In this document: one piece after another, positions 42,935-64,000 of the stretch | How positions within the stretch are numbered: the stretch's first letter is position 1 | Layout of the letters: the number at the start of each line of letters is the position of its first letter | Assembly: GCF_000718785.1 (NCBI RefSeq) | Contig: NZ_JOCA01000016.1 | Coordinates: 1-64,000, forward strand | Source: Streptomyces sp. NRRL WC-3626 | GTDB taxonomy: Bacteria > Actinomycetota > Actinomycetes > Streptomycetales > Streptomycetaceae | Direction: 5' to 3' | DNA: 64,000 nt | Position numbers and translations under genes: made by a program | Notes under the pieces: model-generated | What the model was told of the DNA's origin: nothing | Seen by the model: only the letters and a program-made list of their open reading frames with translations | Database searches by the model: none

Positions 42935-43450
42935 TCAGGCGATAACGCGGTAACGGCGGCGCAGTAGCGCCAGGACTGCGACGGCTGCGAAGGTCATCCA
43001 CGTTTTGCCGAGGATTTGTCCAGGCAGGTAACTGAAGGAGCCGAAGGCAAGGTGGAGGAACAAGAGGCTGTCGGCGAGAAGTCCGACGGCATTCGAGGCC
43101 AGTATCGCGACCAGCAGTCCTCGCTTGCGCAGGGGTTCGTAGACGACGAAGTCCATGGTCTCAGCAACGGCGAAGGCGACCGCTGACGCAGTGGCGAGGC
43201 TGGGGTCAGCGAGAAGGTAGGACAGGACGGTGCCGACGGCTATGGCGGCGAGAATGGCGCCTCGGCCGATTGCCTCGCGTGCAAGGTCGCGTAGGACAAG
43301 CGCCAGGCCGACGAGGTAGACGCCAGCAGGCGCGACGTAACCGAGGCCGACGGGTACCGCGCCGAAATGGGTGACGGCCAAGTTGGCGGCCGGGATAGTG
43401 GCGATGTAGGCGATGAGCGTGGCGATACCAGCAGGAACGGGGGCCTTCAC
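42935..43450 (-). CDS. VUT-family transporter, possible 7-deazapurine importer
   Basis: 171-aa membrane protein with five or six hydrophobic helices, of the vitamin-uptake/YhhQ-related VUT family. Recognisable motifs are TIPAANLAVTHFG, VLRDLAREAIGRG and VAETMDFVVYEPLRKRG. YhhQ-type members import queuosine precursors such as preQ0 and preQ1. Next to a complete preQ0 pathway and a Dpd island, uptake of 7-deazaguanine precursors is the likely job, but this is inference. It is shorter than YhhQ (about 220 aa), as usual for actinobacterial members. It starts at GTG 43450 and is separated from the que operon by a hairpin. Confidence 0.82.
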   Translation of the reverse strand: MKAPVPAGIATLIAYIATIPAANLAVTHFGAVPVGLGYVAPAGVYLVGLALVLRDLAREAIGRGAILAAIAVGTVLSYLLADPSLATASAVAFAVAETMDFVVYEPLRKRGLLVAILASNAVGLLADSLLFLHLAFGSFSYLPGQILGKTWMTFAAVAVLALLRRRYRVIA

Positions 43451-43801
43451 GATCTGCTTTCTCTCTCAGTGGTGGGGTGTTGCGCTCGGCTCCCGCGGGG
43501 AACGGGCGGTGGGGCGAACGTGCAGACAGTGCAGCGCACGGCACTGACATTCTTAAGGCGTCGGTCCGTGCTGCGGTGCTGGGGCAACTGCCTGGTTCCG
43601 GAGGTGTGCAAGGTCCGCATGGGGCAGGCGGCGGTGCCGCGCTGAGGAGTTCGAGCGGAACTCGCGATGGCGGGCGCGCCAGGCAGCGTGGCGGGTGCCA
43701 GCCCGCTGCACGGGTTGCGGGGCGCGTGCATAGCCGCCAGCGGATGCGTCCTGCGGGCTCGGCGGAACCATGTGCCTTGCCGCCGCAGGCGCCGCGTAGG
43801 A
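43451..43801. other. Intergenic region between que operon and VUT gene
   Basis: About 350 bp without a supportable gene. It should contain the VUT promoter. I looked for a preQ1-type riboswitch, tRNA and conserved ORFs and recognised none. A TGCAGACAGTGCA near-palindrome lies around 43519-43531. Confidence 0.4.
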
Positions 43802-43822
43802 AAGGGGGATGGCATCCCCCTT
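43802..43822 (-). terminator. Hairpin ending the que operon
   Basis: AAGGGGGAT (43802-43810) pairs with ATCCCCCTT (43814-43822), a perfect 9-bp stem with a three-base loop, 26 bases past the folE2 stop on the minus strand. Confidence 0.8.
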
Positions 43823-43847
43823 CCCGCTCTGTGGCGCGTGCGTGGGT

Positions 43848-44621
43848 TCAGTCGGTGTAGGTCAGGCTGGCGATGGCGTCGTGGCTGTGAATACTTTCCA
43901 GATTCTTCGCCCGGATCGCATGGTTCAGACCCTTTTCGCGACATGTAAGGCTTACATCACGGATGATGTCTTCGACGAAAACGGGATGTTCGTAAGCCTG
44001 CATGGTGACGACGCGTTCGTCGGGCCGCTTGATGAGGGGTAGGACGGGGGCAGAACCGGCGCTGCGCAGCAAATCGACGATTTCGTGGATCGCCAGGGGG
44101 TAGGGCGCGTCGGCTGTGCCGGTGACCGTGAGGGTGATTTCGCTGCGTTGGTTGTGGGCCCCGTAGTCGGAGATGGCCTTGGAACACGGGCACAGACTGG
44201 TGACGTCGGTCGTCACTGTGGTTGCGACGGTGCAGGTGTCGGGGGTGATGCGGCCGGTGATGGTGACGTCGTGGGTTTGCCATGACTGCTGCTGACTTGC
44301 GGGTGCGGTCACGGTCGTGGCGATGGGCAGGGACAGCGCCATGGCCAGGGTGGGGGCTTCGAGCAGGGTGAGCCCTCGTTTGAGGGCGATGGGCAACTCC
44401 TGCGGGGCGAGGGTGGCCACTTCCTCGTGCACCAGGGCGATCATGCGGCTCATGTGGGTGCCGCGCCGGTCGGCTTGCAGGCCGACGGTGACGCTGATGT
44501 CGGCGATGCCGTGCTGGTGCGTGTGGCCGTCATCGAACGTGACGGGGTAGCGCAGGCCGCTGATTCCCACTTCGTCGATGGCGATGCCGCGGTGGTCGGC
44601 CTCGTTTTGGATGTCGTGCAT
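43848..44621 (-). CDS. folE2: GTP cyclohydrolase IB (FolE2)
   Basis: 257-aa zinc-independent-type GTP cyclohydrolase converting GTP to dihydroneopterin triphosphate, the first step toward preQ0. FolE2 hallmarks are RGTHMSRMIAL near 53-63 and the catalytic-Cys segment SLCPCSKAISDYGAHNQRSE near 142-161. It is the last gene of queC-queE-queD-folE2, four bases after queD. A dedicated copy inside this operon means precursor flow is committed to 7-deazaguanine rather than relying on the folate-pathway enzyme. Confidence 0.95.
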   Translation of the reverse strand: MHDIQNEADHRGIAIDEVGISGLRYPVTFDDGHTHQHGIADISVTVGLQADRRGTHMSRMIALVHEEVATLAPQELPIALKRGLTLLEAPTLAMALSLPIATTVTAPASQQQSWQTHDVTITGRITPDTCTVATTVTTDVTSLCPCSKAISDYGAHNQRSEITLTVTGTADAPYPLAIHEIVDLLRSAGSAPVLPLIKRPDERVVTMQAYEHPVFVEDIIRDVSLTCREKGLNHAIRAKNLESIHSHDAIASLTYTD

Positions 44622-44625
44622 GCTG

Positions 44626-44982
44626 CTACTCGCCTCGGTAGGTGCAGCCGGAGGTGCAGGTCTCGCGCACGGTGATCGCGGACAGTTGGGGGAGTTCGGT
44701 GATCATCCGGTCCCAGATCCAGCGGGCCAGGTTCTCGCTAGTGGGGTTGTCCAGGCCGTCGATGTCGTTGAGGTAATAGTGGTCGAGTTGTGCATCGATA
44801 GGCTTGAAGGCCTGCTTGATATCCCCGAAGTCCATCACCCAGCCCAGTTCCTCGTCTACCGGTGCTTCGACGTGCACGGTGACCTTGTAGGAGTGGCCGT
44901 GCAGTCGGGCGCATTTGTGGCCTTCGGGTACACGGGGCAGGCGGTGGGCCGCTTCGAAGGTGAACTCGCGGAAGATTTCCAT
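44626..44982 (-). CDS. queD: 6-carboxy-5,6,7,8-tetrahydropterin synthase (QueD)
   Basis: 118-aa PTPS/QueD enzyme converting dihydroneopterin triphosphate to carboxytetrahydropterin. The zinc-binding His and catalytic Cys are in AAHRLPRV and [14 protein letters not shown] (near 13-33); [12 protein letters not shown] and [14 protein letters not shown] complete the fold. Full length for the family. The ATG overlaps the queE stop by one base. Confidence 0.96.
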
Positions 44983-45617
44983 TACTGAATTCCCAGATAC
45001 TTGTGCGTCTGGAGAGAGAGTGTCCAGCGCGGGTTCTTCATGCAGTACTCGACAGCGGCGCGGGTGTGGTCCTCACGGTGGGCGTCATCCAGCGGCTGCA
45101 GTCGGAAGTGCTGGAAGTCGAGCCCCTCGAATTGAGCCGGGTCGCCGCCGGCCTGGGGGTAGACCAGTTTCAGTTCATCGCCGCTGGTCAGGACCAGGTC
45201 GGAGCCGATCTTGGGGCTGACGCACAGCCAGTCGATGCCGCGGGGAGCCGGCCGGGTGCCGTTGGTTTCCACCGCTACCTCGAAGCCGCGGCCGTGCAGG
45301 GCGGCGATGGCGTCCTCGTCCAACTGCAGCAAGGGCTCGCCGCCGGTGCACACCACGAACCGGTGGGCACGGTCGGTGCTGGGCCAGGCGGCCTCGACGG
45401 CGTCGGCGAGATCATCCGCAGTGCCGAACCGGCCGCCTCCTTCGCCGTCGGTGCCGACGAAGTCGGTGTCGCAGAACTGGCAGATGGCGCGGGAGCGGTC
45501 TGCTTCCCGGCCGGTCCACAGGTTGCAGCGGGAAAAGCGGCAGAAGACCGCCGGGCGCCCGGCGTGGCTGCCCTCTCCCTGCAGGGTGTAGAAGATCTCT
45601 TTGATCAGATAGGTCAT
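44982..45617 (-). CDS. queE: 7-carboxy-7-deazaguanine synthase (QueE)
   Basis: 211-aa radical-SAM enzyme that contracts the pterin ring to 7-carboxy-7-deazaguanine. The start [20 protein letters not shown] and the cluster-binding Cys residues in RCNLW and ICQFCDTDF (with the long insert typical of QueE) are intact, as are [13 protein letters not shown] and [10 protein letters not shown]. It sits two bases after queC and overlaps queD, so the genes are translationally linked. Confidence 0.96.
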
Positions 45618-45619
45618 GT

Positions 45620-46315
45620 TCAGGCGCTCTGGTACCGGACAGGGTCGGTGACGCCGGCTTCAGCGAAGCCCTTCAGGCGCAGCAGGCACGTGTCGCACTT
45701 GCCGCAGGCCTGGCCCTGGTCATCGGGGTCGTAGCAGGAGGACGTGAGGGAGTAGTCCACGCCCAGGCGCAGGCCTTCGCGCACGATGTCGGCCTTTGAC
45801 ATGGCGATCAGGGGGGAGTGCAGCGTCATCCGGGAGGTGCCCTCCACGCCTGCCCGGGTCGCCAGGTTCGCCATGGTGGCAAAAGCGTCCATGTACTCGG
45901 GGCGGCAGTCGGGGTAGCCGCTGTAGTCCACGGCGGTGACTCCGGTGAAGATGTCGCTGGCACCTACGGTCTCGGCGAAAGCCAGTGCGAACGACAGGAA
46001 GATCGTGTTGCGGGCCGGCACGTAGGTGATCGGCACCCCGCCGTCCTCGACGTCATCCAGCGACTCGTGCTTGGGAACCTCGATGTCGGCGGTCAGGGCA
46101 GAGCCACCGAAGACCCGCAGATCGATGTCGGCGATGACGTGCCGGGCCACCCCCTGGACCTTGGCAACGCGCTTGGCGGCCTCCAGTTCGATGCTGTGCC
46201 GCTGGCCATAGCGGAAGCTGAGTGCATAGGGAGTGAACCCCTGGTCCTTGGCGATGGCCAGCACCGTGGTCGAGTCCAGGCCGCCGCTCAGCAACACGAT
46301 CGCGGGACGGTCCAT
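45620..46315 (-). CDS. queC: 7-cyano-7-deazaguanine synthase (QueC)
   Basis: 231-aa ATP-dependent enzyme turning 7-carboxy-7-deazaguanine into preQ0. The PP-loop is [16 protein letters not shown] (about 7-22). A zinc site is formed by [18 protein letters not shown] (about 193-210). It is the first gene of the que operon and is divergent from the dpd modification operon across 124 bp. Confidence 0.96.
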
Positions 46316-46439: not shown

Positions 46440-47333
46440 GTGAACGAGTTGCCCATCGTGGTCACGTGCACGGACCGGAAAGCGTCCCCTCCCACAGCAG
46501 ACCTGCAGGCCCGCACCCTGACGGCTGTCGACCTGCTCCAGCGGGCGGAGGAGTGGGCGCACCGGCTGCGCACCACACCGAGCAGGCATATGGCGCTGGA
46601 GGACCTGTACCGGGGAGACCAGTGGAAACGCGCCCTCGCGCTCACCCACGCTGCATCCCGGGCAGGCTTCACCCCCCGCCTGTATGCAGCCTCGGCCGGC
46701 CTGGGCCTGCGTCCAGTCTCCAGCCTCGCCCCCTCCTACGCCGCGACTTTCCTGCCCCGGCACGCAGATTCCGTGGCTTCCTCCAGCGCCCAGACCTCCC
46801 AGTGGTGGGATCATCTGCAACGCTTGGACGGCACCCGCGACCTGCCCCAGATCGTCGGCGCCGCCGGACGCGCCCTCGTTGTGCTGTCCGCGCCCTATGC
46901 CCAGGCCATGCACCACGACCTGCTCGCCCTCGCTGATACCGCCACCGACGTCGTCCTGATCGGTGGCGCCACCGACATTGAGGGCATACAGCGCGTGCCC
47001 GCCAACGCCGGCCTGCGCCACGCCCTGGGCGGCACCCTGACCAGCCTCAACGTGCGCATGGCCGCCTCCTGGCTCGAGCACTGCACACCCGGACGCCTCA
47101 CCGACCCCCCTGCCCAGCTGCGCTGGGACGACTGGGCCTCCCAGACCGCCCGGCCCGAGCGCTACGACCGCACACCGGTTACGGACAAGACCGTCATCGC
47201 CTTCATCAAAGAGATGAAGAGCACCTACCCCGACGCCTCCCGCACCCGCCTGCTGCGCCTCTTTCGAGACAAGGGGATGGCCTGCGAACAAAAACGCTTC
47301 GCAGACCTGTACAAATCAACGATTGGCCGCTGA
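46440..47333 (+). CDS. dpdC: DpdC-like protein (candidate preQ0-to-ADG converter)
   Basis: 297-aa soluble protein heading the dpd modification operon. It starts MNELPIVVTCTDRKASPP, like YaaA/DUF6884-type proteins that begin with a short strand and a Cys-x-Lys/Arg-Lys turn, followed by LYAASAGLGLRP and VVLSAPYAQAMHHDLLALAD. In described Dpd systems, DpdC is needed to turn deoxy-preQ0 into the amido form dADG. Position next to dpdB and dpdA and the length support this call, but I cannot confirm homology by search, so a different DNA-modification helper is possible. The 3' end overlaps dpdB by one base (TGATG). The start is GTG with a weak ribosome site. Confidence 0.6.
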   Translation: MNELPIVVTCTDRKASPPTADLQARTLTAVDLLQRAEEWAHRLRTTPSRHMALEDLYRGDQWKRALALTHAASRAGFTPRLYAASAGLGLRPVSSLAPSYAATFLPRHADSVASSSAQTSQWWDHLQRLDGTRDLPQIVGAAGRALVVLSAPYAQAMHHDLLALADTATDVVLIGGATDIEGIQRVPANAGLRHALGGTLTSLNVRMAASWLEHCTPGRLTDPPAQLRWDDWASQTARPERYDRTPVTDKTVIAFIKEMKSTYPDASRTRLLRLFRDKGMACEQKRFADLYKSTIGR

Positions 47334-48466
47334 TGACTTCCACCGTGCTGAAACGCCGAGCCCTGCGGATCGAGCAGCACCCCACGATCCCGCTGTACGT
47401 GTTCACGCTGGCGGCAGAAGAGGTCCACCAGGTCGCCGATGTCGCCCGGATCTCCCGCGACGAGGCCGGCAAACTCATCGGCTACCAGCGCCCCGAGAAG
47501 AAGCAGCACGTACGGCAGATCTTGGAATACCTCGACAGCGACGAGGTCCTCTTCCCCAACGGCCTGATCATGGCCCTGCCTGCCAGTGTGCGCTTCAAAT
47601 CCAGCCCCGGCCCCAGCAGCAGCGACGGCCTGTGCACCTCCGGCACGCTGGAGATCACGCTGCCCGATTCCCCCGACGCCCCCCGGCCCGCCTGGATCGT
47701 CGACGGCCAGCAGCGCAGCCTCGCCCTGGCCCGCACCCGCAACACCCGCCTGGCCGTCACCATCGCCGGCTTCGTTGCCGAGGACCTCGAAACCCAGCGG
47801 GACCAGTTCCTGCGGGTGAACACGGTCTCCCCCCTGCCGACCAACCTGGTCACCGAACTCCTCCCCGAGGTCGGCACCGCTCTGCCCACCAAGCTCTCCG
47901 CCCGTAAACTCCCCGCCGTCCTGGTCGAAGCCCTTAACCACGACAAGGACTCACCGTTTTGCGGACTGGTGCGCCGCCCCTCCACCACCGCCGAGCAAAA
48001 AGCCGACGCTGTCGTCACCGACAACAGTCTGACCACGGCTATCCAGGAGGCCCTCAACTCCCCGTCGGGAGCCTTCTTCCCCTACAAAAACCTCTCCAAC
48101 AACACCGTGGACACCGCTACCATCCGCCAGATCCTCATCACCTACTGGACTGCGGTACGCGACACATTCCCTGACGCCTGGGGCCTGCCGCCGACCCGAA
48201 GCCGCCTCATGCACGGCGTCGGCATCCGCTCCATGGGACGCCTGATGGACCGCGTGATGATGGCCATAGACCCCGCCTCCCCCCACGCACTGCAGCAGGC
48301 ACGCGACGAACTCGCCCTGATCGCCCCGCACTGCTACTGGACCAAGGGGCGCTGGCCCGACCTGAACATCCCCTGGAACGAACTCCAGAACAACCCGCGT
48401 CACATCAGTACCCTGTCGAACTACCTCCTCCGTATCTATGTGCAGGAAAAGGCAAAAGCCGCGTGA
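47333..48466 (+). CDS. dpdB: DpdB-like DGQHR-domain protein, copy 1
   Basis: 377-aa member of the DGQHR group, relatives of ParB/DndB-like proteins. The motif is WIVDGQQRSLALA (about 122-134); before it lie GYQRPEKKQHVRQILEYLDS and PNGLIMALP, and after it DQFLRVNTVSPLPTNLV. In the known Dpd system DpdB works with DpdA to exchange guanine for preQ0 in DNA, with ATPase activity proposed. It overlaps both neighbours (TGATG before, GTGA after), so it is translated with DpdA. It is paralogous to the protein encoded just after dpdA. Confidence 0.85.
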   Translation: MTSTVLKRRALRIEQHPTIPLYVFTLAAEEVHQVADVARISRDEAGKLIGYQRPEKKQHVRQILEYLDSDEVLFPNGLIMALPASVRFKSSPGPSSSDGLCTSGTLEITLPDSPDAPRPAWIVDGQQRSLALARTRNTRLAVTIAGFVAEDLETQRDQFLRVNTVSPLPTNLVTELLPEVGTALPTKLSARKLPAVLVEALNHDKDSPFCGLVRRPSTTAEQKADAVVTDNSLTTAIQEALNSPSGAFFPYKNLSNNTVDTATIRQILITYWTAVRDTFPDAWGLPPTRSRLMHGVGIRSMGRLMDRVMMAIDPASPHALQQARDELALIAPHCYWTKGRWPDLNIPWNELQNNPRHISTLSNYLLRIYVQEKAKAA

Positions 48467-49683
48467 AATTCTATTTCCCTGACAGCCAGGACCTGGTGAG
48501 CCCCACCTATGACTTCGTCAACGACGAGTACTCGCCTTACCGAGTCCGTCAGCGCGACGACGTCTACGCCCACCAGGCCGTGACGCCGATCCCGTATGAC
48601 GGGATTCTTGTCAGCAAGGCTGTTGTCGACGGATCCATGAAGGGTGCAGGGAAATACTCCACTCCGCAGCGCGAGCGGCTTTACCGCCTGGGTGTGAGGA
48701 ACTTCTTCCGCCTTCCCGAAAGGTGCTCCACCATCGGTGACTGTGGCGCCTTCAACTATATTGACGAAGAGCGCCCTCCGTACGAGGTCGACGAAGTCAT
48801 CGATTTCTATGGTCGTTGCGGATTCGATGCTGGCATCAGCATCGACCACATCATCTTCGGCTACATCCCTCAAGAATCCGATACGGAACCAGAAGCGGCG
48901 TGGGTGGAACGCCAGCAGATCTCCCTGGAACTCGCCGAGAACTTTCTCGCCACGGTAAAAAAGCGCGGCGTCCGCTTCGAACCCGTTGGCGCCGCCCAGG
49001 GATGGGGACCCGACAGTTACGCCCACTCCGTCGCGCAACTGCAGAAAATGGGATACCGGCGTATCGCCCTCGGCGGCATGGTCCCCCTCAAGTCCCACGA
49101 GATCCTGGCCTGCCTGCGAGCCATCGACGAAGTACGCAACCACGACACCGAACTACACCTGCTCGGCATCAACCGCGTCGACAGCATGGAGCAGTTCGCC
49201 CGCCACGGCGTGACCAGCTTTGACAGCACCTCCGCCTTCCGCCAGGCCTTCATGGACGACCGCAACAACTACCACACCGCCACCGGCGCCTATACCGCCA
49301 TCAGAGTCCCCCAAGTCGACGGCAACCCCGCACTCAAACGCCTCATCCTGTCCGGAAACGTCTCCCAGGCCCAGGCCATCACCGCAGAACGGGCCTGCCT
49401 GCGTGCACTGCGGGAATTCGATCGTGAAGAAGACTCGCTCGAAGAAGTGCTGGACGCCCTCGCTGCCTACGAGTCGCTCGTCCTCGGTCCGAAGAAGAAG
49501 AGCTATCTCGCATACTACGAGCGCACCCTCAGCGACATGCCCTGGCGCATCTGCCCCTGCGCTCTGTGTAAGAAACATGGCATCGAGATCGCAATATTCC
49601 GGGGAGCCGAGCGGAACAAGCGTCGAGGATTCCACAATCTGACCGTGCTCGAGGCCAAAATGCGCTCCCTCACCTTCGGGTGA
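48463..49683 (+). CDS. dpdA: DpdA, DNA-guanine transglycosylase
   Basis: 406-aa homologue of tRNA-guanine transglycosylase that acts on DNA, swapping guanine for preQ0. TGT-like features: GISIDHIIFG near 120-129 (general Asp), GAAQGWGPDSYAHSVAQL, MGYRRIALGGMV, and HGVTSFDSTSAFRQAF near 248-263 corresponding to the nucleophile-Asp segment FD of TGT. Zinc ligands are CPCALC near 364-369 with a later His in GFHN. The tRNA-recognition insertions of normal TGT are not seen. It starts at GTG overlapping dpdB and is flanked by a DGQHR gene on each side. Confidence 0.93.
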   Translation: MKFYFPDSQDLVSPTYDFVNDEYSPYRVRQRDDVYAHQAVTPIPYDGILVSKAVVDGSMKGAGKYSTPQRERLYRLGVRNFFRLPERCSTIGDCGAFNYIDEERPPYEVDEVIDFYGRCGFDAGISIDHIIFGYIPQESDTEPEAAWVERQQISLELAENFLATVKKRGVRFEPVGAAQGWGPDSYAHSVAQLQKMGYRRIALGGMVPLKSHEILACLRAIDEVRNHDTELHLLGINRVDSMEQFARHGVTSFDSTSAFRQAFMDDRNNYHTATGAYTAIRVPQVDGNPALKRLILSGNVSQAQAITAERACLRALREFDREEDSLEEVLDALAAYESLVLGPKKKSYLAYYERTLSDMPWRICPCALCKKHGIEIAIFRGAERNKRRGFHNLTVLEAKMRSLTFG

Positions 49684-49721
49684 ACCCCCACTTTTCTTCT
49701 TTTGACATGTCTGGAGATGCA

Positions 49722-50825
49722 ATGGCCGACCGATACGAACTCAGGCTCCCGGCGCTCGAGATCCGCCAGGGCGACAAAAAGATCTACTGCTTCGCCGTCG
49801 ACGGCAAGAAACTTCACAGCTTCGCCGCGGTCTCCCGCGTGCGCCGCGACGGCGACAGCAACCTCCAGGGCTACCAGCGCCCCGAGGTCCTTAGTCACAT
49901 CCGCGGCATCCGCCGCTACCTCGAGTCCGACAACGCCATGCTCCCCAACGCCCTGGTCCTGGCCTTCGACGAAAGCGTCAGGTTCGAGAGCGGGGCGCGG
50001 CGGGCCGCCGGCGTCGACTACTCCGTCCCCGGCGAGTTGGTGATCCCTGTCGACGAGTCCCTTGCCGATGAGGACAAGCCCGCCCTGATCGTCGACGGCC
50101 AGCAGCGCAGCGCCGCTATCCGCGACGCCGACCTGGCCGAATTCCCCGTCGCCGTTGTCGGGTTCATCGCCGACAACCACGACGATCAGCGCTCCCAGTT
50201 CATCCTGGTCAACTCCACCAAGCCGCTACCCAAGGGCCTCATCCACGAGCTCCTGCCCGAGACCAGCGGCCACCTCCCGCCCACCTACGCCCGCAAGCGC
50301 CTGCCCGCCCAGTTGATGACCCGCCTCAACACCGACGGTCAGGGTCCCTTCTACGGCCGCATCGCCAGCCCGACCTCACCCGACGGCAACATCAAAGACA
50401 CTGCCATTCTCCGCATGCTGGAGCACAGCCTCTTCGAGGGTGCTCTCTACCAGTACCGCAACCCCGAAGACGGCTCCGGCGACGTCGACCGCATGCTGCT
50501 GCACCTGCGTTCCTTCTGGGCCATCGTTAAGGACACCTTCAGCGATGCCTGGAAACTCCCGCCCCGCCAGTCTCGCCTCACTCACGGCGCCGGCATCCAG
50601 GCCATGGGCTTCGTTATGGACAGCCTTACCGATGGCATGCCTGCCGAAGACGTCGACTGCGACGCAGTACGCAACGCTGTCCTGGGCCTGATGCCGATCA
50701 CCGCCTGGACCTCCGGCATGTGGCGTTTCGCCGACGGCGAGCAGCGCCGCTGGAACGGCCTGCAGAACACCCCCAACGACGTCCGCCTCCTGACCGACCT
50801 GCTGGTCCGCGCCGTACACAGCTGA
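49722..50825 (+). CDS. DpdB-like DGQHR-domain protein, copy 2
   Basis: 367-aa paralogue of the upstream DpdB. It has the same layout: GYQRPEVLSHIRGIRRYLES, PNALVLAFDE, the motif LIVDGQQRSAAIRDA (about 124-138), QFILVNSTKPLPKGL, and a C-terminal WNGLQNTPNDVRLL like WNELQNNPRHISTL in copy 1. The two are clearly diverged, so this is not a recent duplication. The ATG at 49722 is chosen for its CTGGAG site; the frame is open from a GTG at 49680 overlapping dpdA. It closes the modification operon, before a strong hairpin. Confidence 0.88.
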   Translation: MADRYELRLPALEIRQGDKKIYCFAVDGKKLHSFAAVSRVRRDGDSNLQGYQRPEVLSHIRGIRRYLESDNAMLPNALVLAFDESVRFESGARRAAGVDYSVPGELVIPVDESLADEDKPALIVDGQQRSAAIRDADLAEFPVAVVGFIADNHDDQRSQFILVNSTKPLPKGLIHELLPETSGHLPPTYARKRLPAQLMTRLNTDGQGPFYGRIASPTSPDGNIKDTAILRMLEHSLFEGALYQYRNPEDGSGDVDRMLLHLRSFWAIVKDTFSDAWKLPPRQSRLTHGAGIQAMGFVMDSLTDGMPAEDVDCDAVRNAVLGLMPITAWTSGMWRFADGEQRRWNGLQNTPNDVRLLTDLLVRAVHS

Positions 50826-50873
50826 CCTGACCCTTCGCGGTGCTCCGACTATGGGGCACAGCAAATGACGGCA

Positions 50874-51377: not shown

Positions 51378-51589
51378 TCACTCCCGGCAGGGTGGCGTGG
51401 AAGGGTGGTGGGGTGGCAGAGGGGGCGCCGGATGGGGTGGTGACGGGCGGCACGGGTTGCGGCTTCGGTGCGGTGGCCTAGCGTCGACGAATCGCGATCG
51501 CCCAAGATGGTCCACCCGGCGGGGGCGTTGTCGGTGGTGCGGTCTACGCTTCAGCCGGCTGGATGTGAGCATCTTGTGAAGGAAGTGCG

Positions 51590-57488: not shown

Positions 57489-58378
57489 TGGCCCTGCTGC
57501 TCGCGGAATCTTCAATACCACCCTTTATGTGGGCCGTCGTTCGTCTTCTTGCCGCAGAAAAAAGGCCGGTTCCGGTCGATCGCGCACGGGCTCTTCTGGC
57601 TCCCCCGTCCCTGACCGAGGGCAAGGAGAGCAAGACCTTCGACCAAGCCGTGCGCAGCCTGCGCGAGGTGCAGATGGTCGTCGTCGACGAAGGCCGCCTC
57701 TCGCTGACTGGATATGCCAGCGACCTCGACGGCACGGACTTTTCGTCCTTCAGTAGCGCCCTGCGCCAGGCCGTGTTGGCCGGTGAACTCAATGTCGGTC
57801 TGGCCGACGACGCCGGACAGACCGGTTCGCGCGACCTCACCCGCATCCTCGTGTGGTTCCTCTCCTGCGACCCTCTCGACGGACCGGCCACCTGGGACAT
57901 CGTCCAACGCGAGCAGTCCATCGACCTCAATCCGGATGCGGGTACGGCGTCGCGAAACGACACGCGCTGGAACCGCTTCGTGCACTGGGCGCCCGCTCTG
58001 GGCCTGGCCGCGGCGCCCTTGCTGCCCACCAGCGGAGGGGGACCCCTGCTGCCGGATTGCACCGAGGCCGTCAAGCAGACGGTGCACAGGCTGTGGGCGG
58101 TCGGGGAACGCGTCAATGCCGTCGACGCCGCCCGAACCCTGCGCACTGCCCTGCCGGTCCTGCCGGGTGGGGACTACGCCAATGCCATGGGCATCCCCGT
58201 CCCAGGCGGACAGTCAGCCGGGCCGGCCCTGTCCTACGCCTTGCTGCGCGGCGAAGACGAGGGCTGGCTCATGCTGCAGCAGGACGCCGACGCCCAGCGC
58301 GTCTTGACCCTTCATGATCCCGACCGTCCGTCGCACTACGTGTCCGACATCGTCATCTCGGAGGACCAGCATGGCTGA
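57488..58378 (+). CDS. dpdG: DpdG-like protein
   Basis: 296-aa protein without a recognised enzymatic motif, placed exactly where DpdG lies in described islands. It starts at GTG 57488 (VALLLAESSIPPFMWAVVRL), overlapping the dpdF stop by one base. The N-terminal 80 residues look like a winged-helix domain (LLAAEKRPVPVDRARALLAP, VVVDEGRLSLTG). The rest is alpha-rich. The call rests mostly on position. A DNA-binding adaptor for the ATPase DpdH would fit. Confidence 0.7.
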   Translation: MALLLAESSIPPFMWAVVRLLAAEKRPVPVDRARALLAPPSLTEGKESKTFDQAVRSLREVQMVVVDEGRLSLTGYASDLDGTDFSSFSSALRQAVLAGELNVGLADDAGQTGSRDLTRILVWFLSCDPLDGPATWDIVQREQSIDLNPDAGTASRNDTRWNRFVHWAPALGLAAAPLLPTSGGGPLLPDCTEAVKQTVHRLWAVGERVNAVDAARTLRTALPVLPGGDYANAMGIPVPGGQSAGPALSYALLRGEDEGWLMLQQDADAQRVLTLHDPDRPSHYVSDIVISEDQHG

Positions 58379-61300
58379 CTTCCGTGGCTTCCTGTGCTGG
58401 ACGCCCGAAACCGCCGCCGCGACGATCAACACCGAGGCAGTCAGCCCCTCTCGCGCGGTCTTCCTGGCCACGCATGCGCCGCTGCGCATCCGCAGGGCCG
58501 GCCTGGACGGACGTGCCATCGTCTCCGACGGTCCCCTCATCGACGAGAACACCGTCCTCAAAGACTTCCTGTCGTTGCAGTCCGACACCGGCGCGCTCCT
58601 ATTGCCGATCGTCGGCGACTCCGGAACGGGAAAGTCGCACCTGGTGCGCTGGGTGCGCGAAAACCTTCCCCCCTCGGACAGGTACAAGATCATCTATCTG
58701 GAGAAGGCCAAGACCAGCCTGCGCGCTGTGATCGACGCCCTGCTTGCCGACGCGGACAGCGGCGCGCTGGCTCAGTTGCGCTCCGACATCCACCGATTCA
58801 CTGACGGCGTGGACGCGGCCACGCTGAGCAGGCGTCTGGTGAACGCCCTAAGTGAGTCGCTGGCCGCCACGACGGCCCGGGACGTACCTCAGCACGCCCG
58901 TCCGCTGGCCGGTCCCCGCGGCCTGACGGTCGTCCTGCAAGACCCTCACGTGAGCGCTTTCATGCTCGGACAGGGCAAGTTCATCACCCGACTCGCGGAA
59001 CAACTGCTGCAGGACCGCGCAGATGGTGAGCCGGACCGCCCGATGGCGTTCACCATGCAGGATCTCCCCACCGACCTGCTGGATCTCCACCGCGCCGCCC
59101 AGATTACGATCAAGCTGATCAACGTGATCTCGGGCAACACACAACTGCAGCAGGCCGCCGTCGACCTGCTGAACCAGCATCTAGAAGCGGCCGTCAAGCG
59201 GGTGGCGAGCCTGGGAGCGGGCCGCTTGCAGGATGCCATGCTCCAAGTACGGCGGGAGTATGCCCGCAAGGGCAAAGAGATCATCCTGCTCATCGAGGAC
59301 TTCGCGCTGATCCAAGGTGTGCAGAAAGATCTTCTCGATGCGGTCATCGAGGCCGCCAACCGCTACGGCAGCACCACCTTGGCCCCGATCCGCACCCTCA
59401 TGGCGGTCACCACGGGCTATTTCAGCGACCTCCCGGAGACCGCACTCACCCGTGTGCGGGCCACCGCCGGCTATGTCTACAACCTCAACGTCCCCTTCAC
59501 CAATGACGACCAGGGCGAAGCCGAGATCACCTCGTTCGTCGGACGGTATCTCAACGCCGCCCGGGTCGGGCGAGACGCCCTGGAAAACGAGCGGCAGGTG
59601 CGCAATCCCTGCGAGACCTGCGACATGGTCTCCCGATGCCATGAGCAGTTCGGGGCCACCACCGAGGGCTTCGGCCTGTATCCGTTCAACCCCTCCGCCC
59701 TGGTCCGCGCCATCCACGCGACAGCTCCGCGCAGCGACCCTTACGCATTTGTCCCGCGTACCGTGCTGGGCAGCGTGATCCGTCCCGTCCTGGTCGAGCA
59801 CGCCGGCGCACTCAAGGAAGGCACCTTTCCCGACGCCCGTTTCCGCACGCAGTTCCCCACCGCGGACATCGACGAGCCGCTGTCCACCGACGTGCAGGAA
59901 GTGGTAGAGGCAGAGGACCATCTGGATGCAGACCGTCGAAAGATCGTCCTGGAGTTTTGGGGCGGGGCCCCCGACCAGGCCAGCGCGCTGCCGTCCGCGG
60001 TCACAGAAGCCTTCGCCCTGGAAGCCCGTACCTTCTCCGGGGCCAGCGCTGCTCCCAAGCAGCCGATCAAAGCCCAGCCGGCGAAGCGGGAAAAGAAGCA
60101 GACCGAGACGGAATCCACCACCGCAAAGCTCCCTCCTTCTCTCCAGGCCAAGCTCCACGCCGTGGAGGACTGGCTTACCCGCGAACAAGTACTGCCGCAG
60201 GCCGTGGCCGGCGACCTGCGCACGATCATCGCCACGGCCGTCGCCCAGCGCTATCGCTGGGTTAATCCGCTAATGCGGGAACAGAACCAGACGACGATCC
60301 GCGCAGCATGGCCGTCCAATGCTCGTGTGGTCTCCCTCGAAGGCGCAACGGAAAACATTCAAGGCGCGGACACGGCGCCGATCCGGTTCAAGCGGACGGC
60401 ACGCAACAGCCGTTATTTGCGCAGCGTGCTGCTGCTGAAGAACGGCCAGCCCGCCCAGCGGGCCGAACACGTGAGACGACTGAGCACCGAATCCGACCGC
60501 TACACGGCGTCGCTGACCACCGCTTTGCAAAAAAGTCTGCAGATCACCGATGGTGACCTGGTTCTCGGGCTGCGGGCAGCCCTGATCGGCGCCGCTTTGG
60601 CCGGGCAGGCGTGGCCCGGCATGGACGAGGCCGAACTGCTGGCAGTCGCCTTCGCCGACGGCCGCTCCTGGGCGCGCGAGGACACGGCATCGCGCGACGA
60701 TGGGTGGGACCGGGCACTGGAGGGTCACCTTCAGCACAGGACACCCCTCGTCGAACGGTTGCGGGACGCCCTGGGTGTGGCGCAGGGCGAGGGCAAGCCC
60801 CGACTGATCGACGCAGCGCGGGCGCTACCGCTGCTGCGTCAAGCGACAGCGCAGTGGGACTGGCAGGTGACGGGATCGGACATACCGGAGTGGGTGAAGA
60901 AGGCTGTTAAGAACTTCGCCAATTGGACCGACATCGTGAAGGCGCAGAATGCTTCGCTGCGCCACCAACTGGACGGCATACGCCGCCACCATCCACGGGG
61001 CACGACCGGCGCGCAGGTCCTGGCCGCCGTGCGCGACGCGCTTTTTGCGGCCGAGAACGCCAGCATCCCGATTTCGCTGGCCACACGGACAGGTATCACC
61101 AGCCTTCTGGCGCAGGCGCAGGACATCGACTGGAAAATAGTGAACCAACTCGAGAACGATCTCCTACGCGCGGAGGACGCCGAGGCCTCCGACGCGGCCC
61201 GCATCACGGCGGCCGTGCGGGACCGAGGGGTGACCCCCCAGGTGGTCGGAGCCTTGCTGCAGGCCAGTGACGCATGGCTGACCACCGCTTTGGAACACGC

Positions 61301-61400
61301 TGCGTCCCGCACCAACTCCCATGGCGATGAGGCAGCCAGGGGTGTTCAGGAACTTTTGATCGAATGGCAGTCGCTGAGTGCACCGGAGGAGGATCAATGA
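58371..61400 (+). CDS. dpdH: DpdH, large P-loop ATPase
   Basis: 1009-aa P-loop protein. Walker A: GDSGTGKSHLVRWV (about 82-95). Walker B-like: IILLIEDFAL near 304, with a sensor-like APIRTLMAVTTGYF after it. A Cys cluster CETCDMVSRC (about 414-423) may bind metal. A charged linker (KREKKQTETESTT, near 575) separates a C-terminal alpha-rich half. The organisation resembles STAND/ATPase partners of multi-gene defence systems, and the position fits DpdH. The ATG at 58371 follows GGAGGACCAGC and overlaps dpdG by eight bases. Confidence 0.85.
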   Translation: MADFRGFLCWTPETAAATINTEAVSPSRAVFLATHAPLRIRRAGLDGRAIVSDGPLIDENTVLKDFLSLQSDTGALLLPIVGDSGTGKSHLVRWVRENLPPSDRYKIIYLEKAKTSLRAVIDALLADADSGALAQLRSDIHRFTDGVDAATLSRRLVNALSESLAATTARDVPQHARPLAGPRGLTVVLQDPHVSAFMLGQGKFITRLAEQLLQDRADGEPDRPMAFTMQDLPTDLLDLHRAAQITIKLINVISGNTQLQQAAVDLLNQHLEAAVKRVASLGAGRLQDAMLQVRREYARKGKEIILLIEDFALIQGVQKDLLDAVIEAANRYGSTTLAPIRTLMAVTTGYFSDLPETALTRVRATAGYVYNLNVPFTNDDQGEAEITSFVGRYLNAARVGRDALENERQVRNPCETCDMVSRCHEQFGATTEGFGLYPFNPSALVRAIHATAPRSDPYAFVPRTVLGSVIRPVLVEHAGALKEGTFPDARFRTQFPTADIDEPLSTDVQEVVEAEDHLDADRRKIVLEFWGGAPDQASALPSAVTEAFALEARTFSGASAAPKQPIKAQPAKREKKQTETESTTAKLPPSLQAKLHAVEDWLTREQVLPQAVAGDLRTIIATAVAQRYRWVNPLMREQNQTTIRAAWPSNARVVSLEGATENIQGADTAPIRFKRTARNSRYLRSVLLLKNGQPAQRAEHVRRLSTESDRYTASLTTALQKSLQITDGDLVLGLRAALIGAALAGQAWPGMDEAELLAVAFADGRSWAREDTASRDDGWDRALEGHLQHRTPLVERLRDALGVAQGEGKPRLIDAARALPLLRQATAQWDWQVTGSDIPEWVKKAVKNFANWTDIVKAQNASLRHQLDGIRRHHPRGTTGAQVLAAVRDALFAAENASIPISLATRTGITSLLAQAQDIDWKIVNQLENDLLRAEDAEASDAARITAAVRDRGVTPQVVGALLQASDAWLTTALEHAASRTNSHGDEAARGVQELLIEWQSLSAPEEDQ

Positions 61401-62083
61401 GCGCGCCCCTGTCCGTGCTGCAAAAGGCCGAGCGTTTGCAGGCGGAGGCACGCCGACTTAACGAGGGAGAGAAGGGGGAGGAGGAGGCGAGGCGCATCAG
61501 CCAACGCATCGGTGGCCTGCACAACGAGTTGATGGCCCTGCAGCGAAGCCTGCGCATCGCCCGTGCCCTGATGGCTCAGCCGGCGGCCGGCGACATCGAC
61601 TTCTCCGGGCTCGACACAGGCTTGGCAGCCTTCACCCGCCAGTGCGAGGGCGGACTGCCTCCCAACCCCGCCTTCACCAGGGCTTCGACAGCGGTGCACA
61701 AGGTCGCCGACCGCATCGCCCAGGACAGTCAGGAGGCGTGGCGGCAGTGGACACAAGCCCAACTGGTGGCCTTGCAGATGGCGCGGCAGGCCATGCTCTC
61801 CCTGCGTGATCAGGCGCGGGCCAAAACCCTTCACCAAGAACTCACCAAGACGGCTCGCGCCGACGTCGACGTAGCCGTGATCACACTGTTCGCCCATGCC
61901 CATGCCGAACTGGTTGAACTCCTCGAGACTGCGCCAGCGCCGCCAGAAGGACTGCAGACGCTCCTGGACCGTCTTGCCTCCGGCACCGCCCTGCTCCTCA
62001 GCGACATCACGGACGAGGAGATCGCACTGCTGCGTCGTGTCGATCTCGACGCCGACCTGGAAGTCCGCAGGAGGCGCACGTGA
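61397..62083 (+). CDS. dpdI: DpdI-like coiled-coil protein
   Basis: 228-aa, almost entirely alpha-helical protein with coiled-coil character at both ends (LQKAERLQAEARRLNEGEKG near 8-27). No catalytic motif. GAGGAGGATCA precedes an ATG that overlaps the dpdH stop (ATGA). Assigned as DpdI only by position and size between dpdH and dpdJ; it may be a structural subunit of the helicase/ATPase assembly. Confidence 0.6.
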   Translation: MSAPLSVLQKAERLQAEARRLNEGEKGEEEARRISQRIGGLHNELMALQRSLRIARALMAQPAAGDIDFSGLDTGLAAFTRQCEGGLPPNPAFTRASTAVHKVADRIAQDSQEAWRQWTQAQLVALQMARQAMLSLRDQARAKTLHQELTKTARADVDVAVITLFAHAHAELVELLETAPAPPEGLQTLLDRLASGTALLLSDITDEEIALLRRVDLDADLEVRRRRT

Positions 62084-64000
62084 TCACACCGTCCCTTGCA
62101 CGTTTTTACAACCACGTCCTCAACACGCTCGAGAACCGAGAGTTGCCCCTGGTGTCCTGGGGCATCACCGACGGCGCCCTGACCGAGAGCGAAGTCGTCG
62201 AGGCCATCGAACTCTGCCTGCCCGACGCTCCGCAGGAGGCGGCAGGCATCTCGAGCGAAGGCCTGCTGTATGAATTCCGCGACCGTGCCTGGCTGTTCAA
62301 GGTGCCCGACACCTCGCCCCCGCAATATCGCACACGACTGGCCGAAACCGTCCGTCTGGCGGCACAGTTGCGGCAACTCTTCCCTTGGCAGGTCCGCGAC
62401 GAGGCCATGCCGTGGTGGCAGAGCAGCAAGCGACTAGTCGCCGACTACCGCCTGCACACCGCGCCCCGCCGCTACCCCCAGCGCAACATCCCCGCGGCCA
62501 CCGCGCTGAAAGAACTCGCCGACCTGCCAGGGTGGGGCCGCCTCCAGCACCTCGTGGCACAGGCGCAGATCGGCTCCCGTGACCTTGCCCGCTTCCAGAT
62601 CGATGCCGCTGCCGCGGTGACTCAGGCCCTGAAGCGCCCACACTCCAGCGGTGTCATCGTGGGCGCCGGCACCGGCAGTGGCAAGACGCTCTCCTTCTAC
62701 CTGCCGGCGTTCGCCGCCATGGCCGAACGCGCCCGCCCGAACAGCTTCCGACTACACACCCTGGCGCTGTATCCGCGTAAGGAACTGCTGCGCGACCAAC
62801 TACGGGAGGCGCTGAGCACCGCCCGCGCCCTGGAGTCCACCCTGCACAGCGGCGATCGCCGGCCGCTTCGCCTGGGAGCCCTCTACGGAGACACGCCCTA
62901 CCACTCCCAGGACACACGCCTCGAGCCCGGCGCCAACGGCCGCACCACCTGGAAGCGAACCCAGCAAGGCGCCATCTGCCCCTACCTGACGTGCCCGCAA
63001 TGCGAACGCGGTGAACTCCTGTGGCACGACACCGACCGCCGCCGCAACATAGAACGGCTGACCTGCCTCAACCCCACCTGCCAGAGCATCATTCAAGAGG
63101 GCTGCTTGGCCCTCACCCGCCAATCCCAGCGCGAGCAGCCACCAGACCTGCTGTTCACGACGACAGAGATGCTCAACCTCTACAGCGCCGCAGGCGGCAT
63201 CGGTCGACTGCTGGGCTGGCAGGCAGGCGCGGTGCCCTCGCTGGTTCTGCTCGACGAGGTGCACACCTACGCTGGGCTGCACGGAGCGCAGACGGCCCTG
63301 CTGCTGCGCCGATGGCAGCAGGCCGTTGGTAAACCGGTCGCCTTCGTCGGACTGAGCGCCACCCTGCGCGACGCCAGCACGTTCTTCGCCCGCCTGGTGG
63401 GTCTGCGTGACAACAACGTCGAGTACATCCAGCCCGCCGACGACAGCATGGATGAGGAGGGCCGCGAATATGCCCTCGCACTGCGCGGCGATCCCATCGC
63501 CGGCAGCAGCCTGCTGGCCACCTCCATTCAAACGGCCATGCTCTTCGGGCGCATGCTCGACCCTGAGGAAGACGCCGCCCTGTACGGGTCCACCGGATTC
63601 CTCTTCACCGACGACCTGGACGTCACCAACCGCTTCTACGACGACCTGCGCGATGCCGAGGGAAAGCAAGACCGCTACGGCAGGCCAAATGGCCGCCAAC
63701 CCGCCCTCGCCGCCCTCCGCGCTCCGGCCAGCCCCCAGCACCGCGCCCGCTACCGCGACGGCCAGTCATGGGACCTCATGGAGAAGATCGGCCATGTGCT
63801 CACCCCCGGTACGGGCAGTCACGCCCTGCGCGTGGCACGCACGTCGTCGCAGGACGTCGGAGTCGATCTGCACGCGGACCTGACGGTGGCGACCGCTTCC
63901 CTCGAAGTCGGCTTCAACGACCCGCGTGTCGGACTAGTGCTCCAGCACAAGGCACCCCACGACGCAGCGGCCTTCATCCAGCGACGTGGCCGCGCTGGCC
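62080..64000 (+). CDS. dpdJ: DpdJ, DEAD/DEAH helicase, cut by the window edge
   Basis: 640 codons are visible before the sequence ends, with no stop. It starts at GTG (MITPSLARFYNHVLNTLENR) after GCAGGAGG and overlaps dpdI (GTGA). Superfamily 2 helicase: Walker A VGAGTGSGKTLSFYLPAF (about 191-208), a Cys-rich insertion CPYLTCPQC with a later CLNPTC (about 305-335, probable zinc site), LLDEVHTYAGLHG (near 390), GLSATLRDA, then ATASLEVGFNDPRV and AAFIQRRGRAG at the edge. This is the Lhr/YprA-like arrangement expected of DpdJ. The C-terminal part and any dpdK nuclease gene lie outside. Confidence 0.88.
   Translation, partial: MITPSLARFYNHVLNTLENRELPLVSWGITDGALTESEVVEAIELCLPDAPQEAAGISSEGLLYEFRDRAWLFKVPDTSPPQYRTRLAETVRLAAQLRQLFPWQVRDEAMPWWQSSKRLVADYRLHTAPRRYPQRNIPAATALKELADLPGWGRLQHLVAQAQIGSRDLARFQIDAAAAVTQALKRPHSSGVIVGAGTGSGKTLSFYLPAFAAMAERARPNSFRLHTLALYPRKELLRDQLREALSTARALESTLHSGDRRPLRLGALYGDTPYHSQDTRLEPGANGRTTWKRTQQGAICPYLTCPQCERGELLWHDTDRRRNIERLTCLNPTCQSIIQEGCLALTRQSQREQPPDLLFTTTEMLNLYSAAGGIGRLLGWQAGAVPSLVLLDEVHTYAGLHGAQTALLLRRWQQAVGKPVAFVGLSATLRDASTFFARLVGLRDNNVEYIQPADDSMDEEGREYALALRGDPIAGSSLLATSIQTAMLFGRMLDPEEDAALYGSTGFLFTDDLDVTNRFYDDLRDAEGKQDRYGRPNGRQPALAALRAPASPQHRARYRDGQSWDLMEKIGHVLTPGTGSHALRVARTSSQDVGVDLHADLTVATASLEVGFNDPRVGLVLQHKAPHDAAAFIQRRGRAG

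What the first reader, a model, noticed from the sequence alone, without database searches (positions are those of the whole stretch)
42935..64000. Dpd-type DNA 7-deazaguanine modification and restriction island in Streptomyces
A DNA-directed TGT homologue, DGQHR proteins, a full preQ0 pathway and a six-gene helicase/ATPase operon lie together. Established knowledge: such dpd clusters (Salmonella Montevideo is the reference) put dPreQ0 or dADG into DNA and restrict unmodified DNA. Inference: this strain carries that base modification. The family is known; the actinobacterial variant seen here differs in organisation.
Basis: partly seen in the sequence, partly recalled or inferred. Interest (0 to 1): 0.85.

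Follow-up and report, generated by a model that had tools for sequence, protein, structure and literature searches.

The report
Dpd island with DNA-damage promoter
This Streptomyces carries a complete gene island of a known type that is expected to mark its DNA with modified guanines and attack unmarked DNA; new here is that the attack genes sit behind what looks like a DNA-damage switch and belong to a cassette that bacteria exchange while keeping the marking genes.

Summary
Confirmed: 42935-64000 holds a complete Dpd (7-deazaguanine DNA modification/restriction) island. Its restriction operon has eight genes (dpdE-F-G-H-I-J-K-D), not six, and ends at contig position 69202, past the window. 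Dpd islands in Streptomyces are already catalogued (PMC11888242), so it is a new member of a known family. (1) Upstream of dpdE lies a perfect match (51528-51550) to the mycobacterial PafBC/recA-P1 DNA-damage promoter. The genome has 33 such sites against 0 for the reversed pattern, some before recA, uvrA and uvrB, and encodes PafB/PafC homologues. With at most one mismatch the element recurs at the restriction operon in 16 of 27 other Streptomyces dpd loci; 7 lack it. No second match lies in the window. (2) The island is two cassettes: modification genes 97-98% identical over 7 kb are joined to restriction cassettes whose DpdE is only 46% alike, sometimes inverted. (3) Actinobacteria mostly keep two dpdB genes; DpdB1 has lost 24 positions shared by DpdB2 and a single-copy Enterobacter DpdB. 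Prediction: DNA damage raises restriction but not modification, opposite to classical restriction alleviation (recalled). Modification chemistry and induction are inferred, not measured.

The parts
42935..43450 (-). VUT/YhhQ-type queuosine-precursor (preQ0) transporter, 171 aa; optional left end of the modification cassette
   Evidence: Pfam PF02592 38 bits; shared at DNA level with 7 of 20 loci, L004-L008, L013, L059; a YhhQ transporter beside dpd islands is noted in PMC11888242
43848..44621 (-). FolE2 (GTP cyclohydrolase IB), first step to preQ0
   Evidence: Pfam GCHY-1 227 bits
44626..44982 (-). QueD (6-carboxytetrahydropterin synthase), 118 aa
   Evidence: ORF and sequence; no profile run on it
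44982..45617 (-). QueE, Cx14CxxC type radical SAM enzyme
   Evidence: TIGR04508 351 bits, cut-off 240
45620..46315 (-). QueC (preQ0 synthase)
   Evidence: TIGR00364 203 bits, cut-off 150
46440..47333 (+). DpdC (dPreQ0 to dADG)
   Evidence: PADLOC PDLC02817 365 bits
47333..48466 (+). DpdB1, divergent actinobacterial DpdB paralogue
   Evidence: NF041060 404 bits, cut-off 300; lost conserved positions
48463..49683 (+). DpdA, DNA-guanine transglycosylase
   Evidence: NF041059 628 bits; PDB 7UI4 E 1.8e-126
49680..50825 (+). DpdB2, canonical DpdB (ParB/DndB-like ATPase)
   Evidence: NF041060 524 bits; Pfam DndB 91 bits
43850..50827 (.). modification cassette core; DNA homology to other Streptomyces loci stops at or just after the dpdB2 stop
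   Evidence: blastn: in 16 of 20 loci the block ends between 50803 and 50828
51528..51550 (+). PafBC/recA-P1 type DNA-damage promoter TTGTCGGTG-N8-TACGCT, 39 nt before the dpdE ATG
   Evidence: 0 mismatches; 0.05 expected in the window at up to 1 mismatch; 33 sites v 0 control in the genome
51515..64000 (+). restriction cassette (promoter plus dpdE-F-G-H-I-J-K-D), continues past the window to contig 69184-69241
   Evidence: blastn blocks against L187-L190
51590..54901 (+). DpdE, SNF2-type helicase
   Evidence: NF041062 1195 bits
54894..57488 (+). DpdF, RecQ-like helicase
   Evidence: NF041063 847 bits
57488..58378 (+). DpdG (GTG start inferred; the ORF opens inside dpdF)
   Evidence: NF041064 94 bits, cut-off 80; codon checked
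58371..61400 (+). DpdH, ATPase (ATG start inferred; ORF opens at 58314)
   Evidence: NF041065 1054 bits; codon checked
61397..62083 (+). divergent DpdI, predicted all-helical (ORF opens at 61364; start from homologue alignment)
   Evidence: same slot on Enterobacter, Nostoc and Agrobacterium plasmids; weak profile match; start M12; model pLDDT 70
62080..64000 (+). DpdJ, YprA-family helicase, cut by the window end (runs to contig 66603); then DpdK 66600-67121 and DpdD 67103-69202 outside the window
   Evidence: PADLOC 1800 bits on the full protein; DpdK 236, DpdD 905 bits

Best explanation
It is a complete Dpd modification-restriction island. FolE2, QueD, QueE and QueC make preQ0 from GTP; DpdA with the DpdB pair swaps guanine in DNA for preQ0, and DpdC hydrates it to dADG (inferred from characterised homologues). 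DpdE-F-G-H-I-J-K-D, three helicases, an ATPase, a PLD-family nuclease and accessory proteins, attack DNA without the mark (inferred). The restriction operon, but not the modification operon, carries a PafBC-type DNA-damage promoter (motif shown). When ssDNA accumulates, as during phage attack or when Dpd helicases and nuclease open unmarked DNA, PafBC activates the promoter and more restriction complex is made, a possible positive feedback (inferred). The two halves evolve as separate cassettes around one shared mark, so different restriction cassettes can read the same modification (exchange shown by sequence; functional compatibility inferred). DpdB1 is most likely a non-equivalent partner of DpdB2 in the transglycosylase complex (inferred).
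For: Family membership. No TGT family match in the genome. Motif: perfect at 51528-51550 and the only match with up to 1 mismatch in the window; 33 perfect sites in the own genome, 0 of the reversed control; 101 of 101 Streptomyces genomes sampled have 9-44 sites each, with 9 control hits in total. Genes after the own sites include recA, uvrA, uvrB, ung, pcrA, xseA, dnaX. PafB and PafC homologues are adjacent and near two Pup-ligase family genes, with PafBC chains as best PDB matches. At dpdE, up to 1 mismatch within 130 nt in 13 of 60 loci; same scan before queC 0 of 61, dpdC 0 of 63, dpdB1 0 of 64, dpdA 0 of 64, dpdB2 5 of 64, random windows 23 of 20000. By eye the leaders around the motif share no other block between the DpdE lineages. 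Cassette exchange.
Against: No chemistry, transcription or restriction data. The motif is missing at dpdE in 7 of 27 named Streptomyces loci (L006, L009, L012, L013, L036, L059, L061), weak in 4 more (2 mismatches in L014-L016, 3 in L017), and at 1 mismatch or fewer in only 1 of 33 non-Streptomyces loci (L055), so damage control is not essential to Dpd. PMC9380542 (passage seen) says an initial search suggested that the M. smegmatis PafBC motif is not conserved in S. venezuelae. The control scan upstream of dpdB2 gave 5 of 64; the four of these sites whose positions I compared (L040, L045, L047, L065) lie at the 3' end of dpdA. The four loci L008, L010, L011, L018 count for the motif only through a site in front of a short dpdE-like remnant, not directly at their dpdE.
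Confidence: 0.75

Rival explanations
1. The dpdE promoter answers DNA damage, but through another regulator that reads the same element (ClgR has been proposed for mycobacterial P1), or through PafBC for a purpose unrelated to phage, such as repair or removal of badly damaged cells.
For: PMC5656591 passages report that ClgR recognises the P1 promoter region. Three helicases and an ATPase in the operon could act in repair.
Against: PafB and PafC homologues are present near the Pup-ligase genes; ClgR was not searched for. The link of the operon to DNA modification genes cannot be used as evidence, because the loci were fetched by DpdA.
Confidence: 0.15
2. The motif upstream of dpdE is a chance match and the restriction operon is expressed constitutively.
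For: 7 of 27 named Streptomyces loci lack it at dpdE.
Against: 33 v 0 sites genome-wide; 13 of 60 v 23 of 20000 random windows; kept in lineages whose leaders show no other shared block.
Confidence: 0.08
3. The preQ0 genes serve tRNA queuosine or a 7-deazapurine natural product, and the dpd genes are passengers.
For: preQ0 is the precursor of other 7-deazapurine molecules in bacteria (PMC11888242 section 37 read).
Against: No TGT family match in the own genome while 14 of 14 controls have one. The preQ0 genes lie with dpdC-B-A-B as one conserved block in the Streptomyces loci aligned.
Confidence: 0.03
4. Not cassette exchange: the restriction genes simply evolve fast in place.
For: Defence genes often evolve fast (recalled, no call).
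Against: L012 and L014-L016 share 97.4-98.1% identity over 7.1-8.2 kb of the modification side, but only short 66-69% DNA matches beyond it and 46-47% identical DpdE; cassettes occur in both orientations; DpdE of L008, L010, L011, L018 groups with Nocardioides, Terrabacter and Kribbella; AU p 1.7e-11 against one clade.
Confidence: 0.03

Closest known systems
Dpd system of Salmonella enterica serovar Montevideo (dPreQ0/dADG)
   Same: DpdA, B, C plus the restriction genes; DpdA matches 7UI4 over residues 1-400 of 406
   Different: a second divergent dpdB; FolE2; PafBC-type promoter before dpdE; very divergent DpdI. The S. Montevideo island itself was not fetched; its gene set is from PMC11888242 and recall
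Actinomycetota dpd islands listed by GATOR-GC (PMC11888242, section 37 read): 333 unique windows, Streptomyces among the main genera, 801 additional dpdB copies over all islands, YhhQ transporter
   Same: same gene content, including extra dpdB and transporter
   Different: that section does not discuss a damage promoter, cassette exchange at fixed boundaries, or what the second dpdB has lost
PafBC (LexA/RecA-independent) DNA-damage regulon of mycobacteria (PMC5656591, PMC11804915; passages seen)
   Same: consensus tTGTCRgtg-8nt-TannnT; recA and other repair genes behind it; PafB/PafC homologues
   Different: here a restriction operon carries the element, in Streptomyces; binding and induction not shown
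WYL regulators of defence systems (BrxR, CapW and relatives; PMC9122589, PMC9122601, PMC9122588; listings and starts of abstracts seen)
   Same: WYL-domain control of phage defence
   Different: those are dedicated regulators found with the system; here the element of a global, chromosomal damage regulator is used
BRIGADE systems of haloarchaea (PMC12458937, passages seen)
   Same: 7-deazaguanine genes with a YprA helicase and usually a PLD nuclease
   Different: BRIGADE has ARMADA-like YprA proteins and was detected only in halophilic archaea; here DpdJ scores 1800 bits to a PADLOC DpdJ model

Membership tests
Dpd system | DNA-directed TGT homologue DpdA | tested here: met
   NF041059 628/200 bits; 7UI4 E 1.8e-126; CxCxxC and H391 kept
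Dpd system | DpdB (DGQHR/ParB-like ATPase) | tested here: met
   two copies above cut-off
Dpd system | DpdC for dADG | tested here: met
   PADLOC 365 bits; no NCBIfam hit
Dpd system | preQ0 supply | tested here: met
   FolE2, QueE, QueC by profile; QueD by sequence only
Dpd system | restriction genes dpdD-K | tested here: met
   D, E, F, G, H, J, K by profile; DpdI by slot and weak profile match only
Dpd system | 7-deazaguanine bases in genomic DNA | not testable with these tools
   needs LC-MS/MS
Dpd system | restriction of unmodified DNA | not testable with these tools
   needs transformation or phage assays
PafBC regulon | promoter element tTGTCRgtg-8nt-TannnT | tested here: met
   consensus
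PafBC regulon | PafB and PafC encoded in the genome | tested here: met
   homologues:
PafBC regulon | damage induction, lost without pafBC | not testable with these tools
   needs reporter or RT-qPCR
BRIGADE | ARMADA-like YprA homologue in the operon, haloarchaeal host | tested here: not met
   the operon's YprA protein is DpdJ by PADLOC and NCBIfam; genome of the genus Streptomyces; YprA proteins elsewhere in the genome were not searched

The most novel reading that the evidence does not exclude
In Streptomyces the Dpd restriction operon is a genuine member of a PafBC-type damage regulon and forms a self-amplifying sensor: restriction of unmarked DNA makes ssDNA, ssDNA activates PafBC, PafBC raises restriction while modification stays flat. 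This is the reverse of restriction alleviation. Around it, one modification cassette serves several highly divergent, interchangeable restriction cassettes, and an asymmetric DpdB1-DpdB2 pair drives the transglycosylase.
Probability: 0.35. Interest if true: 0.8.

Novelty: new variant of a known kind. Interest (0 to 1): 0.6.

Why it matters
It makes a direct prediction that a reporter can test. Natural pairs of near-identical modification cassettes with highly divergent restriction cassettes (L012 against L014-L016) make it testable whether one DNA mark can license several restriction machines. The motif survey also points to a PafBC-type damage regulon across Streptomyces, which the cited S. 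venezuelae study (PMC9380542, passage seen) left open.

Tried and rejected
Rfam search of the window, both strands: no match at gathering score, so no known riboswitch. tRNA queuosine as the use of preQ0: no TGT match. Att-like copies of the neighbouring tRNA-Arg (exact 18-mers) outside the gene: none in the 90 kb held; between left and right flanks the longest match is 17 nt, inverted. The relatives search with the flank around tRNA-Arg was not developed into an empty-site comparison, so the way of insertion is open. A DpdG N-terminal extension suggested by the ORF (56957) was dropped: that start lies inside dpdF. A site about 500 nt before dpdE in L009, L012, L061 (1 mismatch, in the last T) was not counted because no consistent gene follows it. 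Sites at 11171 in L040, L045, L047 and at 11177 in L065 lie at the 3' end of dpdA and were not counted as promoters. Fold search of the DpdI model: no PDB match at E <= 0.001, 281 at E <= 10; the model has pLDDT 70 and pTM 0.53, so no fold claim beyond all-helical. DpdB2 has no PDB relative by sequence at E <= 0.01. DpdA against phage records: one unannotated record at 38% identity, not pursued. In some searches the upstream flank was placed wrongly for four loci near contig ends (L017, L013, L033, L053); correct this, and the count 13 of 60 is unchanged. L033 has only 54 nt of upstream sequence, so its absence of the motif is uncertain. No general promoter scan was run.
Full report
WHAT IS THERE. 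The window is positions 1-64000 of contig C16 (167400 bp) of a 7.9 Mb genome of the genus Streptomyces (inferred from the nearest named relatives). From 42935 the genes are: VUT transporter, folE2, queD, queE, queC on the minus strand; then dpdC, dpdB1, dpdA, dpdB2 and, after a 764-nt gap, dpdE, dpdF, dpdG, dpdH, dpdI, dpdJ on the plus strand. The window end cuts dpdJ; the contig continues with the rest of dpdJ (to 66603), dpdK (66600-67121) and dpdD (67103-69202), then an IS4/5-type transposase gene and, at 72533-72606, a tRNA-Arg beside an argS-related gene. Family assignments rest on Pfam, PADLOC and NCBIfam profiles; scores are in the observation check. DpdA aligns with PDB 7UI4 over residues 1-400 of 406 (E 1.8e-126). 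In an alignment of 62 DpdA, one from Enterobacter, 63 polar, charged, Tyr or Gly positions agree in at least 61, among them CxCxxC (364, 366, 369) and H391. DpdA relatives occur in 17 of 295 Streptomyces genomes sampled, own included.

HOW IT MOST LIKELY WORKS, CHEMISTRY. By homology, preQ0 is made by FolE2, QueD, QueE and QueC, put into DNA by DpdA with DpdB, and converted by DpdC to dADG; PMC12839542 (passage seen) summarises those steps and calls DpdB a ParB-like ATPase. The genome has no match to the TGT family PF01702 at E <= 0.001, while 14 of 14 control genomes have one over the cut-off (DpdA itself falls just short of that threshold). The restriction side has SNF2, RecQ-like and YprA helicases (DpdE, F, J), an ATPase (DpdH), a PLD-family protein (DpdK) and DpdD, G and I.

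THE GENE WITHOUT A FAMILY IS MOST LIKELY DpdI. The ORF between dpdH and dpdJ matched no profile at E <= 0.01 and had 10 relatives at E <= 0.001 in the protein search, 7 with a Streptomyces name and 3 without a name; more distant relatives at 26-40% identity lie in the same place in other actinobacterial loci. Enterobacter, Agrobacterium and Nostoc plasmid islands have an unnamed 234-282 aa protein in the same slot. A profile of 21 actinobacterial sequences plus the 10 relatives matches the Agrobacterium and Enterobacter proteins weakly (6e-6 and 8e-6 in a three-sequence search; Nostoc 0.024); hhalign probabilities were low (59% at best). The model is all-helical at modest confidence. I take it as a very divergent DpdI.

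A DNA-DAMAGE PROMOTER IN FRONT OF THE RESTRICTION OPERON. When 20 related Streptomyces loci were aligned to the window, a short stretch upstream of dpdE stayed alike even in loci where the rest of dpdE did not. It holds TTGTCGGTG-N8-TACGCT at 51528-51550, a perfect match to the consensus tTGTCRgtg-8nt-TannnT of the LexA/RecA-independent mycobacterial promoter that depends on PafBC (PMC5656591, passages). Chance: 0.05 matches expected in the window with one mismatch allowed; one found, with none. In the own genome there are 33 perfect sites and 0 for the pattern read backwards. Of 29 sites other than dpdE for which a locus was held, I scanned the downstream protein of 20. Ten were picked by eye as likely repair or regulatory proteins: Ung, DnaX, XseA, PcrA, RecA, UvrB, UvrA, a second UvrD/Rep-type helicase, a RarA-like ATPase and an ECF sigma factor (several are cut by the locus end and so score below the full-length cut-off). 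Of ten others one is a RecD2-type helicase and nine show no repair domain. So at least ten of 29 sites lead to replication or repair genes. In 14 of 30 loci the likely start codon lies 6-9 nt after TAnnnT, as for leaderless transcripts; dpdE starts 39 nt after it behind GAAGGAAG. The genome encodes adjacent PafB and PafC homologues near two Pup-ligase family genes. Their best PDB matches are two chains of 7p5x (2.3e-54, named transcriptional regulator-like protein; 2e-52, named PafC) and both match PafBC 6sj9 (3e-47, 2e-38). In a sample of 101 Streptomyces genomes, own included, all have the pattern, 9 to 44 times each, against 9 control hits in total. PMC9380542 (passage) reported that an initial search suggested the motif is not conserved in S. 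venezuelae; I did not test that species by name. PafBC is triggered by ssDNA in mycobacteria (PMC11804915, title, abstract start and passages).

IS THE PROMOTER CONSERVED WITH DPD? DpdE genes above cut-off were found in 60 of 62 genomes searched (30 of 30 and 30 of 32); the genomes of L023 and L058 were not searched. Within 130 nt upstream, 13 of 60 have the motif with at most one mismatch; the same scan gives 0 of 61 before queC, 0 of 63 before dpdC, 0 of 64 before dpdB1, 0 of 64 before dpdA, 5 of 64 before dpdB2, and 23 of 20000 random windows. Four of the dpdB2 sites were located and lie at the 3' end of dpdA. In four more loci (L008, L010, L011, L018) the motif and a short dpdE-like 5' remnant stand in front of a different dpdE. 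Counting those, 16 of 27 named Streptomyces loci have it with at most one mismatch, three have two mismatches (L014-L016), one has three (L017), and seven lack it (L006, L009, L012, L013, L036, L059, L061). Outside Streptomyces it is rare: 1 of 33 with one mismatch (L055), L054 with two, and L066 with two at 137 nt; L033 had only 54 nt to look at. In the motif-bearing lineages I see no other shared block in the leaders (by eye), which points to selection on the element. On a quick DpdE tree of 54 rows the motif label, degenerate forms included, needs at least 7 changes.

TWO CASSETTES. Loci L004-L067 were fetched by similarity to DpdA, so the conserved modification genes are partly a matter of selection; the contrast with the restriction genes is not. 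Among 19 loci, window included, with DpdA at least 86% identical to the window's, DpdE falls into four groups with pairwise identity down to 28%. DNA homology to the window ends at 50803-50828, around the dpdB2 stop, in 16 of 20 loci; in L017 and L018 it runs about 100 nt further, and in L004 and L005 it runs on. In relatives of the same restriction type the block ends near the dpdD stop (69205-69241 in L187-L189; 69184 in L190), and in L190 (the L016 genome) it is inverted as a unit, 51515 to 69184, beside the same modification cassette. L012 and L014-L016 share 97.4-98.1% identity over 7.1-8.2 kb of the modification side, with only short 66-69% matches beyond and DpdE 46-47% identical. The 19 loci form one group on the DpdA tree (100% SH-aLRT); holding them together on the DpdE tree is rejected (AU p 1.7e-11; quick trees, and I had seen the identity groups before the test). 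DpdE of L008, L010, L011 and L018 groups with Nocardioides, Terrabacter and Kribbella.

TWO DpdB PROTEINS. dpdB1-dpdA-dpdB2 is found in 59 of 64 loci; L031, L058, L060 and L062 show only the B2-like copy and L064 only B1 next to DpdA. Both copies keep DGQQR and QRxQF. At 24 positions the single Enterobacter DpdB and at least 95% of 62 DpdB2 agree while under 10% of 61 DpdB1 do (for example K43, R148, K181, D97, D367 in DpdB2 numbering); the reverse holds at 5, conservative or aromatic. DpdB1 therefore looks like the derived copy, kept for a different role. GATOR-GC counted 801 additional dpdB copies without this analysis in the section read.

WHAT IS KNOWN AND WHAT IS NEW. Dpd islands in Streptomyces, extra dpdB copies and YhhQ transporters are in print (PMC11888242, section 37). 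Four founding or review papers (PNAS 2016, Mol Microbiol 2018, NAR 2023, MMBR 2024) are not held here, so earlier statements on cassette exchange in them cannot be excluded. No held paper contains both PafBC and 7-deazaguanine; four hold PafBC and anti-phage, of which I saw listing and starts of abstracts. Verdict: known family, new variant in control and modular make-up.

Noticed in passing
G000 whole genome; 101 Streptomyces genomes: A PafBC-type damage promoter pattern is present in all 101 Streptomyces genomes sampled, 9-44 perfect sites each against 9 reversed-control hits in total; in the own genome sites precede recA, uvrA, uvrB, ung, xseA.
   Followed up: partly
L008:13433-13716, L010:14359-14855, L011:9181-9683, L018:12832-13250: A damage-type promoter and a short dpdE-like 5' remnant stand in front of a different dpdE whose frame opens with a zinc-finger-like stretch; it looks like a scar of cassette replacement.
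   Followed up: partly
L064 (Virgisporangium ochraceum) and L045 (Terrabacter sp. Root181): The two genomes of 62 without a DpdE above cut-off: L064 shows queC, queE, queD, DpdB1 and DpdA without recognisable dpdC or restriction genes in the stretch held; L045 keeps dpdF, G, H.
   Followed up: no
L027, L031, L032: Little or nothing like the window's restriction cassette within 10 kb to the right of dpdA, although their genomes have a DpdE; other genes may sit beside the modification cassette there.
   Followed up: no
contig C16 72533-72606 (L002:12533-12606): tRNA-Arg (ccg) about 3.3 kb past dpdD; in some relatives short copies of its 3' part recur, as at integration hot spots. No copy found in the own 90 kb held.
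   Followed up: partly
G000:C19:73994-74016 (L103) and G000:C26:111365-111387 (L108): Damage-type promoter sites in front of a SUKH-4 protein and a WGR-domain protein, possible further non-repair members of the regulon.
   Followed up: no
MT835580.1 34181-35446 (H9): Unannotated phage record from human faeces encoding a DpdA relative over 99% of the query, 38% identical to the window's DpdA.
   Followed up: no
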